Positions 5,726-39,008 of a DNA stretch of 64,000 nucleotides are shown in pieces. Position 1 is the first letter of the stretch; each line of letters starts with the position of its first letter. Under the pieces are notes generated by a model. The model was given only the letters and a program-made list of their open reading frames with translations. It did not search any database and was not told where the DNA came from. A program made the position numbers and the translations under genes. The stretch comes from ANME-2 cluster archaeon (GTDB lineage: Archaea > Halobacteriota > Methanosarcinia > Methanosarcinales > Methanocomedenaceae), in assembly GCA_019429385.1 (NCBI GenBank), contig JAHYIS010000006.1:1-64000 (forward strand). Direction: 5' to 3'.

Positions 5726-6202
5726 ATGGTTAGAACAGTTTTGATTTCATTGTTGATTATCTTATTAGTATCAATGTCCTGTGTTCCGGTGGCTTCAGCA
5801 ATAACTGAAGATGAGGCAATGCATTTTTTCCTGAATATCTATAATCCTCTTCTGGATAAAATAGTCAAGGATATTCCACTTATTGATACGGTATTCGGAG
5901 GACAGGTCATCCATATAGTGGTCGAAAAACCTGAAGGGAATATCGAGCTGGGAGCAGTGACCAATTCGGATGGATATATCACTGAATTGACCAGCGGTAA
6001 ACCGGATAATCCAACCCTTCGGTTGATTTCGACCGAAGCTGTCGTAGAAAAGGTCAGAGCATCTGATGACCCGGTTGCAGAAACGAACAAAGCGCTAAAG
6101 AATGGAGATATTTATTACGAAGGAATCGGCGTCAAACAGGAGATAGGGGTTACCATTGTAAAAGTAGTATTCTTCTTTGCAGACCTGTTTGGTATCATTT
6201 GA
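5726..6202 (+). CDS. Small exported protein, possibly SCP2-like
   Basis: 158 residues with a clear signal peptide: MVRTVLIS, then a hydrophobic core, and a likely cleavage after PVASA near residue 25. The mature part is soluble. Its spacing of GAVTNSDG, a strand, DNPTLRL and a C-terminal amphipathic stretch (NGDIYYEGIGV) recalls sterol-carrier-protein (SCP2) domains, which bind lipids in a hydrophobic groove. That resemblance is weak and only a suggestion. The start is secure: AGGAGTGATG lies just upstream of the ATG. The gene stands alone; a 16-base palindrome 82 bases past its stop may end the transcript. Confidence 0.6.
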   Translation: MVRTVLISLLIILLVSMSCVPVASAITEDEAMHFFLNIYNPLLDKIVKDIPLIDTVFGGQVIHIVVEKPEGNIELGAVTNSDGYITELTSGKPDNPTLRLISTEAVVEKVRASDDPVAETNKALKNGDIYYEGIGVKQEIGVTIVKVVFFFADLFGII

Positions 6203-6283
6203 TTATGGGTGAATATTAAGGGATGGACATACTATTTACCATCTCATCTTTTTTATACGCCTGTTCTCCAGTAAGAACATCAA

Positions 6284-6299
6284 ATACCTATATAGGTAT
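6284..6299. promoter_or_regulatory. Perfect 16-bp palindrome, operator or terminator
   Basis: ATACCTATATAGGTAT reads identically on both strands. It lies in the 437-base AT-rich gap between the exported-protein gene (stop 6202) and the RNase III gene (start 6640). On the plus strand it is followed by GATTTTCTTATTC, so it could fold into a short hairpin ending the upstream transcript. Perfect symmetry without a loop fits a dimeric repressor site better. Nothing else in the gap was recognisable as a gene or RNA. Confidence 0.4.
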
Positions 6300-6639
6300 G
6301 ATTTTCTTATTCAATTCAAGAGAGGATTTCGATAAAACTCACAAGAACGTTTACTCTTAAATGACATGCAGTATCGGCAGTTTTGTATCGGATTAGTAGA
6401 TTATTATTTTGAATTGAAAATATATTGCGGGCATAGACCAAATATATATACTATTAATAAAATGAATAATTACTAAAAATAGAATTAATAACCATAAAAG
6501 TAAGTTATTAAAACAGGCCTCTTGTAAATAATAATTAGAATAAAATATTATTTGCCAGATGTTTGTTTTAATATCTCATTTTTATTATTACTGGTTCTTT
6601 TTGTTTTTTGATTTATTTCAAAATACACGAGGAAAATAT

Positions 6640-7398
6640 ATGATATTGAATAATGACTTAACGGTAAGAGATGAAGATTTAGAAAAATTTCAAAATATAA
6701 TTGGTATCAAGTTTAATAATCCAAAATATTTGATACACGCTTTGCTGCACGGATCAACATTTAGTGGAGACAAAACGCGATTAGAACATTTTAAAAATAT
6801 AAATAATCTCGATGCTGACAATTATGAAAAACTGGAATACCTTGGGGATTCAGTTTTGGGTTTGATTGTAGCTGAATATTCGTATAATCAAAATGAAATT
6901 GAAGAATACGCAAACATAAACAACAAAACAATAGAGGGCGTTTTAACTGAGGTTAAGAAAGTACTGGTATCCAATGATAGTCTAAAATCTCTGGCAGACA
7001 CAATACAACTTGATAAATATATAATATATGGCAGCGGCCTGGTAAATATTGATACTATATATCCAAATGTAATAGAAGCGCTTATTGGTGGTATTTATCT
7101 TGATCAGGGGTATCCTGAAGCGAAGAAATTTGTCTACAAATATTTTGACATAAAAGGCGCTTTAGGTAAAATAGGTGACTCAAATCCCATCGGAAAATTT
7201 CAAGAGGAAGCAGTTAAAAGAGGTTATAATAACCCGATATACAGAGAAATAGAACAATGGGGCCCTGACCATGACAAACATTTCAAACAAGGGTTATATT
7301 TGGATGGCAATAAAGTAACTGAAGGGGAAGGAAGTACTAAAAAAGAGGCAAATAAAAAAGCTGCTGAAATTGGACTGATAAAAATGGGATTTTCATAA
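6640..7398 (+). CDS. rnc: Ribonuclease III (bacterial type)
   Basis: 252 residues when started at the ATG at 6640, which follows GAGGAAAATAT. An upstream in-frame extension of 27 residues is hydrophobic and lacks an SD. The nuclease domain (about 10-165) carries the signature EKLEYLGDSVL, giving Glu63, Glu66 and Asp70 as the metal and catalytic residues; Glu146 lies in NVIEALIGGIYLD. The position matching E. coli Asp114 is Asn143. A double-stranded RNA-binding domain occupies about 181-252 and ends in KKEANKKAAEIGLIKMG. RNase III cleaves double-stranded RNA in rRNA, mRNA or antisense duplexes, and it is uncommon in archaea, which process rRNA by other endonucleases. The gene is markedly AT-rich compared with its neighbours and is followed by a T-run (7399-7405). 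Horizontal acquisition is likely. Confidence 0.9.
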   Translation: MILNNDLTVRDEDLEKFQNIIGIKFNNPKYLIHALLHGSTFSGDKTRLEHFKNINNLDADNYEKLEYLGDSVLGLIVAEYSYNQNEIEEYANINNKTIEGVLTEVKKVLVSNDSLKSLADTIQLDKYIIYGSGLVNIDTIYPNVIEALIGGIYLDQGYPEAKKFVYKYFDIKGALGKIGDSNPIGKFQEEAVKRGYNNPIYREIEQWGPDHDKHFKQGLYLDGNKVTEGEGSTKKEANKKAAEIGLIKMGFS

Positions 7399-7405
7399 TT
7401 TTTTC

Positions 7406-7576
7406 TCATTCCTTGCCCGAGCAGAATCTTTTCATCCCGCAGGGTCCGACCCCGTCATGTAACAGGCGGGGCATCGGGATGATTGACGGGTCACCGGTAT
7501 ATTTAGACAAACTGTCCAGGGCCTGTATAGCCATTTCAGGATCATATCCCGTTATTCCCAAAAATGAAGTAAGATT
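7406..7576 (-). pseudogene. Coding-like vestige next to tRNA-Leu
   Basis: Just beyond the 3' end of tRNA-Leu, the minus strand has 56 open codons ending at TGA (7406-7408). It reads like real protein: Gly-Tyr-Asp-Pro-Glu, a helix-like AIQALDSLSKYTG, and a Cys-containing end (GPCGMKRFCSGKE). There is no ATG, GTG or SD at its beginning, and the tRNA occupies the space where the rest of a gene would lie. The base composition matches the GC-balanced core rather than the adjacent AT-rich RNase III gene. I read it as a leftover 3' gene fragment of unknown identity; chance openness cannot be excluded. Confidence 0.25.
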
Positions 7577-7577
7577 A

Positions 7578-7662
7578 TGCGGGGGAAGGGATTCGAACCC
7601 TCGAACTCCTACGAGACTAGGCCCTGAACCTAGCGCCTTTGACCTGTCTGGGCGACCCCCGC
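7578..7662 (-). tRNA. tRNA-Leu (anticodon CAG)
   Basis: An 85-nt class II tRNA. The acceptor stem pairs GCGGGGG with CCCCCGC and leaves discriminator A. The anticodon stem CTAGG/CCTAG closes the loop TTCAGGG, giving anticodon CAG (plus-strand CTG at 7624-7626). There is a long variable arm, and the T arm reads GAGGGTTCGAATCCCTT. No CCA is encoded. An AT-rich box-A-like stretch (ATACATAAACATAATAAG) lies about 15-35 bases upstream of the 5' end at 7662. Confidence 0.96.
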
Positions 7663-7772
7663 ATTTTGTTTACTTATTATGTTTATGTATTTGTCCATAC
7701 TGTGCGCTTGAGCGCAAGCACCAAGCTGTCAATGGATACGGAGTCTGAATATCGCTAATTAGATTTAAGCCT

Positions 7773-8699
7773 TTATGTTGAACCCATCAATTTTATCAAC
7801 AAAGCTTTCTGTGCATGCAACCTGTTCTCAGCCTCATCCAGTATAGCAGAATGGGGGCTGGTAAGCACCTCACTGGTAATCTCCTCGCCACGGTGTGCGG
7901 GCAGGCAGTGCAGCACAATAACATCATCCTTTGCCACATCCAGCAATGCATCATTGATCTGGTACGGCCCCAGGTCGCGCATCCTCTGTTCCCGCTCATC
8001 CTCATCGCCCATGGAGACCCACACATCAGTGTACAGGATGTCGGCATTCAGGGCAGCAACCTTCGGGTCCGATACTATCTCGACCGAGCCGCCCAGCTCC
8101 CGGGCACGTTCCACACTACCATGGTCAGGCTCGTACCCTTCAGGACAGGCCACGCTCATCTGCATTCCGGTAATGGCTGCAGCGAGTATCGCAGAATTGC
8201 ACACATTGTTCCCATCCCCTATCCAGGCGAACTTCAAACCTTCCAGCTTTCCCTTATATTCCCGGATGGTCATAAGGTCCGCCAGCAACTGGCACGGGTG
8301 TTCCAGGTCTGACAGGGCATTGATAACAGGCACACTCGCATAGTGGCCCAGTTCAACGAGAGTATTGTGACTGTTCACCCTTGCCATAATCCCGTGCACA
8401 TACCTTGACATCACCTGGGCCGTGTCACCGATGGTCTCTCCTCTTCCAAGCTGAAGGTCACGGTAGTTCAGATACAGGGGGTGCCCCCCCAGTTCATTCA
8501 TTGCCACTTCAAAGGAAATGCGGGTCCTGGTCGAGGATTTTTCGAAGATCATGGCAAGGCTCTTGTTCTTGAGCTTTTCCACCACCAAACCACCGGCTCG
8601 TTTGGCTTTCAGTTCGTCTGCCATATCCAGCAGCTCAATAATCTCAACACGCGACAGGTCACTCATGGATAATAAATGGGACAAAATATCACCTTTCAT
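7773..8699 (-). CDS. argF: Ornithine carbamoyltransferase
   Basis: 308 residues. It catalyses carbamoyl phosphate + ornithine to citrulline, the sixth step of arginine synthesis, in the cytoplasm. The carbamoyl-phosphate loop SSTRTR is at 55-60 and is followed by SFEVA. The helix motif with HPCQLLAD comes mid-protein, and the ornithine-site Cys-Leu-Pro is in [10 protein letters not shown] near the C-terminus. Length and order are typical of anabolic OTCases rather than aspartate carbamoyltransferase, which lacks the HCLP motif. The ATG at 8699 is the natural start. It lies downstream of purD on the same strand after 35 bases, so a shared transcript is plausible. The tRNA-Leu gene follows. Confidence 0.95.
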
Positions 8700-17044: not shown

Positions 17045-17500
17045 TTATTCTGAAGGATAAATAAATCCCTTTTTAACAAGTCTCCGGACTTCTTCCACTG
17101 GAAGAAGAGTGCCATTTATAGTATCTAATTTTGGGTTTGCAGGGTCAACACCATATTTCTGAATATATGTCGCACGTGCCTCTTGTTCAATTGTCATCAT
17201 CTCATCCATTGTTATTACAGCATCATAATCCACCCCTTCTACTGACCCTTCAGGTGGTTCTCCAGTTTCAGTGACTATGACTCTTGTTTTTCCATCTAAA
17301 ACCGTTCCATCCTTGTAGTGAGGCAACTCACCGTTTGCAAACTTGATATCATTCTCAGTTATGTTATATTTCAGGTATAGTTCATTTAACTCATTTGGTG
17401 TATAGTGAGGGAATTGAGACGTTTTATCCACACTAATTGAGTATGCAATTGTGCTTAAAAGTAATAATACAATAATTATCAAGGCAATTTTTATCTTCAT
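17045..17500 (-). CDS. Small membrane-anchored or exported protein
   Basis: 151 residues. An N-terminal hydrophobic segment (about 5-22, with TIAYSIS after it) acts as a signal or anchor. The outside part is acidic and contains GKTRVIVTETGEPPEGS and two short helices. No Cys follows the hydrophobic stretch, so it is not a lipoprotein. The body matches no family I know. Its AT content is higher than the core genes, and it is followed downstream by 230 bases with no gene. It sits upstream of tpiA but is probably not part of that unit. Confidence 0.5.
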   Translation of the reverse strand: MKIKIALIIIVLLLLSTIAYSISVDKTSQFPHYTPNELNELYLKYNITENDIKFANGELPHYKDGTVLDGKTRVIVTETGEPPEGSVEGVDYDAVITMDEMMTIEQEARATYIQKYGVDPANPKLDTINGTLLPVEEVRRLVKKGFIYPSE

Positions 17501-17704
17501 TTGACTTTCACCTGCGATTCCATCTTCTTAATCCTTAAGTACTTGTGTAATATGTTCACTCGCGTCATAATTTTTCACTTCGAAATTCAAAGGTTCCGTC
17601 AGAGAATAATTTATATTATAAAAGTCCACTTTTTTTTATTATTTCCACTAATAAGCTTTGAGGTATGATTGATTTATTCCAGGACACGGTCGCCAATTTT
17701 GTGG

Positions 17705-18115
17705 TTAATTAGTAAATTGTAATATCCGTATGGGAACATTTTTTCCGCCCTCAGATCCGCATATTTTTCCGTCCTCATATCCACATAAAAATATACTAAC
17801 CCTCCCGAATTCCTTTTTTGATATAATTGTGTCAGTAATATTATCATCTAAACGAACTTTAAATAAATAGTCTCCTCTTTTGTCAACGATTTTTTTAGAA
17901 TTTATCGGAATTCCGGGGCTTGACATGTACGTTTCATTGAATATCAATTTCCCATCAGTATCAAATATTACTACAGTTACCTCATGGTTCTCAACATCAT
18001 AATTAGTAATAGCAAATTCCAATGGTTTATACATAAGTAAAGGAGTATAAATTATAATCATCAATCCAATAACTACAATTCCTGCACATATGATTATTTT
18101 TTTGTTTCTTTTCAT
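17705..18115 (-). CDS. Small membrane-anchored protein
   Basis: 136 residues: a short basic N-terminus (MKRNKKI), a single membrane segment (about 7-29), and an extracellular beta-rich domain with the alternating pattern HEVTVVIFDTDGKLIFNETY near residue 45. The pattern resembles an immunoglobulin-like or carboxypeptidase-regulatory fold, but this is only a pattern impression. Two Cys residues (FLCGYEDGKICG) could form a disulfide. Function unknown. It shares its AT-rich character and strand with the preceding exported protein, but 204 bases separate them. Confidence 0.5.
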   Translation of the reverse strand: MKRNKKIIICAGIVVIGLMIIIYTPLLMYKPLEFAITNYDVENHEVTVVIFDTDGKLIFNETYMSSPGIPINSKKIVDKRGDYLFKVRLDDNITDTIISKKEFGRVSIFLCGYEDGKICGSEGGKNVPIRILQFTN

Positions 18116-37767: not shown

Positions 37768-38535
37768 TTAAGATAACATATGAATCTTACTAAGATAATC
37801 GGGTAACCGTTCTTTGGATGAGCTCAAACTTGAATATTGTTTTTCAATTATATCGCTAAATCTCGCAAGTACTTTCTTATTAATGTCTTCTTGATTCTCG
37901 AATATACCTATAGAAGTAAAAGAAGATCCCCACCTTTCAAATGTTAGGCAGGTAATCATTGCATCACGACATTTATCATTATTATATATACCAAAAATAA
38001 ATAATGGCATCTCATTTTCAACATAACAGTCTACAGGATACTTTCCACTAGAGTCTTTACTAGATTCTTTGTAGTCAAAATTACATTTATCTCCAAAAAG
38101 CCCCACTAAATATTCTTGGAATTCTTCGTAAAATAATGATCTAATACGTTCTCTTTTAGTAAAGGCAATGTCTGTTACTTTAATTAGTCCCTGGATAAAA
38201 GTGTAAAATCCATCACTGAAATAATTATCTTCAACAAAACATTTTAATTCCCCACTATCATTTTCAAGATCATGAGTCTTGAGGACCGAATTGATTATTT
38301 CTTTCCTTTTACCTCTCTCGAAATCTAAATCATCATAAGATAGATGCATGAAAGTATGTCCTTCATCAGTAAAATACCATCCGTTCCCATTCTTTTTAAG
38401 AACTATATTTAAAAAATCTCCATCTTCAAAGGTAAATGGAGCTGAAATTATAAACCTATCTTTACCTTCAGGGAACATTTCAATTTCATCACAAACTTTT
38501 TTTCTGAATTCTTTTTCAAGTGATTCGATGTCCAT
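37768..38535 (-). CDS. DUF1828-domain protein
   Basis: 255 residues. The N-terminal 90 match DUF1828: APFTFEDGDFLNIVLKK, then WYFTDEGHTFMHLSYDD near 52-68. The remainder, containing KYPVDCYVENEMPLFIFGIY near 165, resembles the DUF1829-type partner domain. DUF1828 proteins occur in mobile or defence-associated loci; their activity is not established. The gene is AT-rich relative to the core genome. Nine bases separate it from the gene upstream (38544-39008), indicating a two-gene unit, inserted next to a truncated restriction-modification gene. Confidence 0.65.
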   Translation of the reverse strand: MDIESLEKEFRKKVCDEIEMFPEGKDRFIISAPFTFEDGDFLNIVLKKNGNGWYFTDEGHTFMHLSYDDLDFERGKRKEIINSVLKTHDLENDSGELKCFVEDNYFSDGFYTFIQGLIKVTDIAFTKRERIRSLFYEEFQEYLVGLFGDKCNFDYKESSKDSSGKYPVDCYVENEMPLFIFGIYNNDKCRDAMITCLTFERWGSSFTSIGIFENQEDINKKVLARFSDIIEKQYSSLSSSKERLPDYLSKIHMLS

Positions 38536-38543
38536 ATTACCAC

Positions 38544-39008
38544 CTAATTAAAATTATTTAAGAAAGAAATATCTCCCTTAAAATTGCAATCAATTAGCAT
38601 TTTTGTGAGAGCATCTTTCCAATTGTTGTATGCATCTGTTACTTCAGCATATCCATCAATTCTGAACCCAGCCTCTGGGTATCTCTGGGTTGCTTTATGT
38701 ATATGGAAATCTCTGAATTTGTTCTTTTCAATTTGATTCTTATGAATATGCTTTCCATTATATCTTCTCAATATGTGATATTTTCTTTTTTCATCTACAT
38801 AAATCAATATCACGGAAAAGTCAAAGACGTTTAATGTATTTTCTCTTATTCTTAGCCTAAAATTTTTACCAGAATTTGACCTTACATCCAAATCATATTC
38901 TCTATATGCGCGATTTTCTTTGTTTTTGAGTCGTATTTCATTCAAGTTTTTTGAAGAGAAAAGTTTAACATCATTAATTAAGACTTGAATTTCGGAATCT
39001 GAAAGCAT
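38544..39008 (-). CDS. AT-rich partner of the DUF1828 protein
   Basis: 154 residues of basic and aromatic-rich sequence. The middle reads FRLRIRENTLNVFDFSVILI then HILRRYNGKHIHKNQIEKN, followed by FRDFHIHKATQRYPEAG. This recalls the small DUF6978-type proteins I have seen beside DUF1828 genes, but the identification is from memory and tentative. Conserved His and Arg residues could be catalytic. Toxin-antitoxin or defence roles are guesses from context. It is the first gene of the pair; the AT-rich 159-base gap before it shows nothing else. Confidence 0.5.
   Translation of the reverse strand: MLSDSEIQVLINDVKLFSSKNLNEIRLKNKENRAYREYDLDVRSNSGKNFRLRIRENTLNVFDFSVILIYVDEKRKYHILRRYNGKHIHKNQIEKNKFRDFHIHKATQRYPEAGFRIDGYAEVTDAYNNWKDALTKMLIDCNFKGDISFLNNFN

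What the first reader, a model, noticed from the sequence alone, without database searches (positions are those of the whole stretch)
6203..7405. Bacterial-type RNase III in an AT-rich island
RNase III with a complete double-stranded RNA-binding domain is rare in archaea. The gene and its flanks are far more AT-rich than the neighbours, it has its own T-run terminator, and it lies next to a tRNA gene. Acquired RNase III could add antisense-RNA or dsRNA control not normally available.
Basis: partly seen in the sequence, partly recalled or inferred. Interest (0 to 1): 0.58.

Follow-up and report, generated by a model that had tools for sequence, protein, structure and literature searches.

The report
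Archaeal RNase III with self-target hairpin
An archaeon carries a bacterial-style enzyme that cuts double-stranded RNA, and its gene's own messenger begins with a long conserved hairpin of just the kind that enzyme cuts, which suggests that the enzyme switches off its own production.

Summary
The gene is real: an RNase III with a complete dsRNA-binding domain, 6640-7398 (+), 252 aa, the only RNase III in its genome. It is AT-rich (GC3 0.26 against a window mean of 0.49) and lies 178 nt from tRNA-Leu(CAG). It is not rare: 93 of 185 genomes of the order carry an RNase III domain. Its closest kin outside the genus is in another family of the same order, and identities suggest archaeon-to-archaeon transfer, not direct capture from bacteria. 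The new finding lies upstream: the "AT-rich flank" holds a ~48-bp hairpin (6479-6609) just before the Shine-Dalgarno sequence. A covariance model of it (32 pairs, 15 with compensatory changes) hits 9 of 185 genomes of the order, 11 elements, every one directly upstream of this RNase III type and nowhere else. The hairpin's 3' foot doubles as an anti-Shine-Dalgarno sequence in 8 of 9 leaders; folding predicts that losing its 5' arm closes the ribosome site. Best reading: negative autoregulation by self-cleavage, known for bacterial RNase III but not found described for archaea. All of this is computed; there are no cleavage or expression data. The hairpin is absent from the nearest relative (G017).

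The parts
6640..7398 (+). RNase III gene, class I architecture (RNase III domain + dsRBD), 252 aa
   Evidence: AlphaFold2 model, mean pLDDT 85.9; best PDB match A. aeolicus RNase III 2ez6, E 1.4e-13
6479..6609 (+). leader hairpin I, ~48 bp imperfect duplex; arms 6477-6536 and 6543-6602; predicted RNase III substrate
   Evidence: z -5.65, 0/200 shuffles; covariation; 94 bits, the only hit in the genome apart from its own mirror on the other strand
6595..6634 (+). alternative hairpin II: anti-SD (overlapping the 3' foot of hairpin I) pairs with the SD
6629..6633 (+). Shine-Dalgarno sequence GAGGA
   Evidence: sequence
6440..6450 (+). TATA-like box about 34 nt before hairpin I (home-made consensus score)
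   Evidence: similar spacing (-34 to -40) in 7 of 9 leaders among the two best-scoring sites
7399..7404 (+). T-run after the stop codon (terminator-like)
   Evidence: sequence
7577..7663 (-). tRNA-Leu(CAG); linkage to argF conserved in the family; an insertion has probably happened at it in G017
5726..6202 (+). 158-aa protein without a Pfam family; the same upstream neighbour in G017
7773..8699 (-). ornithine carbamoyltransferase-like gene (argF; name from recall), ancestral neighbour of the tRNA

Best explanation
This is an active-looking archaeal RNase III whose mRNA leader is its own target. Transcription starts just before hairpin I, which folds first. While hairpin I is intact, its 3' foot is tied up and the Shine-Dalgarno sequence is open, so the enzyme is made. 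When enough RNase III is present it cuts the ~45-bp duplex, the 5' arm is lost, and the freed foot (an anti-SD) pairs with the Shine-Dalgarno sequence and shuts translation. This is a negative feedback loop on a potentially harmful nuclease. Gene and leader are an old unit of this RNase III clade and probably reached the window's lineage from a member of another family of the same order. SHOWN BY COMPUTATION: the gene, the hairpin, its covariation, its exclusive linkage to RNase III, and the overlap of foot and anti-SD. INFERRED: transcription start, cleavage, translational shut-off, direction of transfer.
For: Hairpin: sequence conserved across 2 families and 5 genera. 32 pairs, 91.5% of cells paired (shuffled 82.5, 0/500), 15 pairs with changes on both sides (shuffled 8.5, 0/500), all measures far above slid controls. 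10 of 10 copies fold as near-full-length hairpins, z -3.0 to -10.2 (the G079 copy was trimmed there). Linkage: model R1 hits 9 of 185 order genomes, 11 sense elements, all directly upstream of this RNase III type, including G082, which was not in the model (gene positions); in 392 phylum genomes only 7, all already known. z below -4 in 5 of 40 RNase III leaders against 1 of 180 control leaders. Strand: the mRNA-sense RNA is the more stable in 9 of 11 copies, with 78 G-U pairs against 25 on the other strand. Switch: most partners of the SD lie inside hairpin I in 8 of 9 leaders. SD openness is 0.27-0.80 with hairpin I held and 0.00-0.21 after loss of the 5' arm, 8 of 8 leaders. SD openness of leader tails is 0.002-0.29 in 8 hairpin leaders against 0.30-1.00 in 20 hairpin-less ones. 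Enzyme: E41, D45 and E117 equivalents intact. Precedent: rnc autoregulation in E. coli, S. aureus and S. coelicolor (PMC3386247, PMC10126417, PMC3997798, passages).
Against: No RNA or biochemical data. The closest relative G017 (86% identical over 215 columns) and all five g27 genes lack the hairpin, as do 25 of 33 clade rows, so the loop is dispensable. At equilibrium hairpin II usually wins even when the leader is whole: SD openness in the free fold is only 0.02-0.31 in 7 of 8 leaders, so the switch would have to be kinetic, and holding hairpin I raises openness partly by construction. G120's anti-SD is outside hairpin I. The single-leader shuffles are weak for G000 (20/200), G120 (83/200) and G158 (73/200). 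The D114 equivalent is Asn here. For G158's proximal copy the antisense strand is the more stable.
Confidence: 0.62

Rival explanations
1. The enzyme cuts the hairpin, but cleavage triggers mRNA decay, as reported for bacterial rnc, and hairpin II is incidental.
For: Feedback through rnc mRNA decay is the bacterial precedent. SD shuffles are weak in three leaders, and G120 lacks the overlap.
Against: The anti-SD overlap recurs in 8 of 9 leaders, and tail SD openness separates hairpin from hairpin-less leaders.
Confidence: 0.2
2. The hairpin is a precursor of small RNAs processed by the linked RNase III, with targets elsewhere.
For: Pre-miRNA-like size with a variable inner stem; tandem copies in G118 and G158; a sub-threshold hit to a microRNA precursor family (27.3 of 85 bits).
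Against: The most conserved part is the outer stem next to the gene, and the element never occurs away from this gene. The Rfam hit is probably compositional.
Confidence: 0.07
3. Ordinary acquired RNase III; the hairpin is a DNA palindrome or mobile-element remnant without function.
For: AT-rich inverted repeats are common near insertions (recall); the hairpin is missing in the closest relatives.
Against: Compensatory changes, excess of G-U pairs on the mRNA strand, no other copy in G000 by sequence or model, fixed place before the gene in five genera.
Confidence: 0.08
4. RNase III here took over pre-rRNA processing.
For: That is its classical bacterial role (PMC8708148, passages).
Against: G000's 16S processing stem keeps a perfect bulge-helix-bulge motif, 12+4+16 bp, as does G009.
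Confidence: 0.03

Closest known systems
Bacterial class I RNase III (rnc)
   Same: RNase III domain + dsRBD, E41/D45/E117 equivalents, fold
   Different: 24-29% identity to the best-matching bacterial structures; Asn at the D114 place; below the TIGR02191 cut-off (150 of 166 bits); archaeal host
Autoregulated rnc mRNAs (E. coli rncO leader; S. aureus stem-loop in the coding region; S. coelicolor)
   Same: Feedback by cleavage of a duplex in the enzyme's own mRNA (passages)
   Different: Unrelated hairpin (no Rfam match over threshold) in an archaeon, with its 3' foot acting as a predicted anti-SD; the reported bacterial outcome is mRNA decay
RNase III reported as acquired by some mesophilic Euryarchaeota (PMC4571572, passage)
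   Same: Same enzyme group in the same broad lineage
   Different: That passage names no leader element; [quoted passage not shown]

Membership tests
RNase III superfamily, class I | RNase III domain and C-terminal dsRBD over curated cut-offs | tested here: met
RNase III superfamily, class I | Acidic residues E41, D45, E117 (E. coli numbering from PMC8708148) | tested here: met
   E66, D70, E146
RNase III superfamily, class I | D114 equivalent acidic (highly conserved in bacteria, not a family-defining invariant) | tested here: not met
   N143; N in 7 of 33 clade-A rows and 1 of 12 bacterial/viral rows. Weakens the claim of full activity, not of family membership
NCBIfam TIGR02191 equivalog (ribonuclease III) | score at least 166.25 bits | tested here: not met
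   150.2 bits; not filed under this equivalog
RNase III superfamily, class I | Cleaves dsRNA as a dimer | not testable with these tools
   needs biochemistry
Autoregulated rnc leaders | Stable hairpin in the enzyme's own mRNA | tested here: met
   (that the leader is transcribed is inferred)
Autoregulated rnc leaders | Hairpin cut by RNase III; expression rises in catalytic mutants | not testable with these tools
   no experiment possible
Element integrated at a tRNA gene | Duplicated tRNA end at the far border, or integrase | tested here: not met
   No second tRNA-Leu stretch over 10 nt in the window; no integrase recognised among the adjacent proteins scanned

The most novel reading that the evidence does not exclude
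The conserved hairpins, single or in tandem, are diced by the linked archaeal RNase III into discrete small RNAs, so that gene plus hairpin is a self-contained, transferable small-RNA-producing module as well as its own brake, a simple archaeal counterpart of a Dicer and its precursor.
Probability: 0.07. Interest if true: 0.85.

Novelty: new variant of a known kind. Interest (0 to 1): 0.6.

Why it matters
Archaea are often said to lack RNase III, and what the enzyme does in those that have it is not described in the papers I found. A conserved leader that looks like the enzyme's own substrate gives a concrete, testable target: it would show that the archaeal enzyme is active and dose-controlled, and that RNase III feedback, found in several bacteria, also exists in archaea with a different RNA and possibly a different mechanism (translation rather than decay).

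Tried and rejected
Direct bacterial origin: no bacterial, plasmid or phage relative over 36% identity in the rows listed; the tree puts the gene with 31 sequences of family f5. Mobile element or virus carriage: no close viral relative, no att-like repeat in the window. rRNA-processing role: disfavoured by the bulge-helix-bulge stem. Conserved operon partner: none seen for the window gene; clade A sits at different stable loci in g23 and g27. The region between RNase III and the tRNA as structured RNA: z -1.24, dropped. Transfer inside the order: supported by identities (RNase III window-g27 60%, g27-g23 53%; purD, same groups, 65% and 78%) but holding the f5 rows together is not rejected (AU p 0.28 and 0.31), and paralogy in f5 is a caveat. 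In one search my group label 'f1other' wrongly swept in families f11 and f17; only the branch listing was used. In one search two of the nine RNase III regions with 40 bp or more are doubtful (L093 start misplaced, L090 z 0.08). In one search I gave 20 of the 25 hairpin-less clade-A rows; the rest were left out because their called start looked extended beyond the conserved start. In one search G082's start was set about 2 nt off; its SD is unaffected.

Full report
THE OBSERVATION. The window is bases 1-64000 of contig 6 of a 2.4-Mb archaeal genome (G000). ORF 6559-7398 encodes an RNase III domain and a dsRBD. Homologues begin at the equivalent of ATG 6640, and GAGGA starts 11 nt before that start, so the protein is 252 aa. 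An AlphaFold2 model from 11 sequences has mean pLDDT 85.9, with helices for the nuclease domain and a helix-strand-strand-strand-helix dsRBD. Foldseek's best match is Aquifex aeolicus RNase III (2ez6). E41, D45 and E117 equivalents are present in all 33 clade rows; the D114 equivalent is Asn in the window and in 7 of 33 clade rows in all. I recall, without a call, that yeast Rnt1p also has Asn there and is active.

COMPOSITION AND SITE. RNase III has GC3 0.258 against 0.491 +/- 0.097 for 54 window ORFs. The related genes in genus g27 have GC3 0.23-0.26 in loci of 42-47% GC, so low GC belongs to this gene line and does not date its arrival. tRNA-Leu(CAG) next to argF is seen through the family. 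Homology to relatives without the gene ends at about 6333 on the left (G016) and begins at about 7490 on the right (G019), which bounds the acquired stretch. Only G000 and G017 show the two sides together, so no empty site could be shown.

DISTRIBUTION AND ORIGIN. PF14622 matches in 93 of 185 genomes of the order, 86 over the cut-off. A model of RNase III + dsRBD matches 139 of 392 genomes of the phylum at E <= 1e-8. In the window's genus, of 8 genomes, G000 and G017 carry clade A, G015, G016 and G018 carry a different RNase III-dsRBD (clade B), and G014, G019 and G020 show none (completeness 65, 57 and 83%). In an 87-row tree the window gene joins 31 family-f5 sequences (SH-aLRT 97-99), nearest to g27. 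Identity supports a transfer inside the order: window-g27 60% against g27-g23 53% for RNase III, but 65% and 78% for purD. The AU test does not reject keeping f5 together (p 0.28, 0.31).

THE LEADER HAIRPIN. Folding 6287-6660 gave z -2.66 and a long hairpin. The inverted repeat is 6477-6536 / 6543-6602, 60 nt, 75% complementary. Of 40 RNase III upstream regions, 9 have a single hairpin of 40 bp or more, against 21 of 396 other genes' upstream regions from the same loci; z is below -4 in 5 of 40 against 1 of 180 sampled controls. Hairpins in G000, G079, G094, G097, G118, G120, G132 and G158 proved homologous: they share a UUUUAAUA-CUUAUUUUU-like stretch in the 3' arm, 68-86 nt before the start where the called start is right. 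The ten copies (tandem in G118 and G158) each fold as near-full-length hairpins, z -3.0 to -10.2. On the alignment, 91.5% of cells pair (shuffled 82.5), 15 of 32 pairs change on both sides (shuffled 8.5) and the covariation score is 0.451 (0.260), none reached in 500 shuffles; slid structures pair 40-50%. The structure was derived from the same sequences, which favours it over the slid versions, and related rows can exceed shuffles for that reason.

EXCLUSIVE LINKAGE. Model R1 over 185 order genomes hits 9 genomes, 11 sense elements, each immediately upstream of a clade-A RNase III gene; every other listed match is the mirror of one of these on the other strand. G082 was not in the model; its RNase III gene is fragmentary. 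The stricter filter used on more than 40 genomes may lose weak matches. In 392 phylum genomes the model finds 7, all among the nine. In G000 it is single copy. No Rfam family reaches its threshold there. In the 37-row tree hairpin leaders sit on the deep branches of clade A, so the leader looks ancestral and often lost, including in G017 and g27; I name this as the main weakness for a strong functional need.

HOW IT MAY WORK. After loss of the 5' arm the 3' foot pairs with the SD: the SD's partners lie mostly inside hairpin I in 8 of 9 leaders, not in G120. With hairpin I held, SD openness is 0.27-0.80; after arm loss 0.00-0.21; in the freely folded whole leader 0.02-0.68, and over 0.31 only in G079. 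Leader tails of hairpin genes have SD openness 0.002-0.29 (8 of 8), hairpin-less ones 0.30-1.00 (20 of 20 given). Shuffling the tails: as closed or more so in 20, 3, 1, 83, 14, 10, 14 and 73 of 200 for G000, G079, G118, G120, G094, G097, G132 and G158. The RNA of the gene's own strand is the more stable in 9 of 11 copies, with 78 G-U pairs against 25, which points to the mRNA as what selection sees. TATA-like boxes lie 34-40 nt before the hairpin in 7 of 9 (home-made score, among the two best sites, no shuffled control), so transcripts would start just before it.

ALTERNATIVES TESTED. rRNA: G000's 16S stem has a perfect bulge-helix-bulge motif (score 25.5, shuffled maximum 14). Of the five other genomes re-searched to 1,000 nt because no clear motif showed within 300 nt, two have clade A (G119, G132) and three do not (G006, G153, G155); none gave a convincing motif, so there is no visible link to RNase III.

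LITERATURE (passages found by term, not whole texts). [quoted passage not shown] PMC4571572 says some mesophilic Euryarchaeota apparently acquired it; PMC3432209 and PMC3510493 treat archaea as lacking it or it as undescribed; PMC8339473 gives bulge-helix-bulge processing in most archaea. Bacterial rnc autoregulation: PMC3386247, PMC10126417, PMC3997798. Searches whose listings showed no paper on an archaeal RNase III leader or autoregulation; only an open-access library was searched and only the listed part was seen.

VERDICT. The leader is the surprise: a conserved, RNase III-exclusive RNA hairpin with a built-in anti-SD, best explained as self-targeted feedback.

Noticed in passing
L161 355-4788 and L063 1-3060 (G017): In the close relative G017 a polyhydroxyalkanoate synthesis locus (PhaE- and PhaC-like, thiolase, short-chain reductases) lies between RNase III and tRNA-Leu, with a 52-nt tRNA-Leu 3' fragment on the RNase III side and the intact tRNA on the argF side: a probable integration at this tRNA.
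   Followed up: partly
window 37768-39008 and 17045-18115: Two other AT-rich gene pairs (GC3 0.23-0.29); one gene matches DUF1828, the other three match no Pfam family.
   Followed up: partly
L099, L100, L101, L102: A second, distant RNase III-dsRBD (clade B, ~28% identical) in other members of the family that lack the window's type; in G015, G016 and G018 it sits at a conserved locus.
   Followed up: partly
order genomes, e.g. G116: Several genomes carry multiple RNase III-domain genes, including ~150-aa forms without dsRBD and ~390-410-aa forms.
   Followed up: no
window 7490-7576: A stretch downstream of the tRNA-Leu 3' end is conserved in relatives without this RNase III gene (G019, G008, G009), so it belongs to the tRNA locus.
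   Followed up: no
L098 7491-8106 (G082): Hairpin leader intact in front of a fragmentary RNase III gene, perhaps a recent pseudogene.
   Followed up: no
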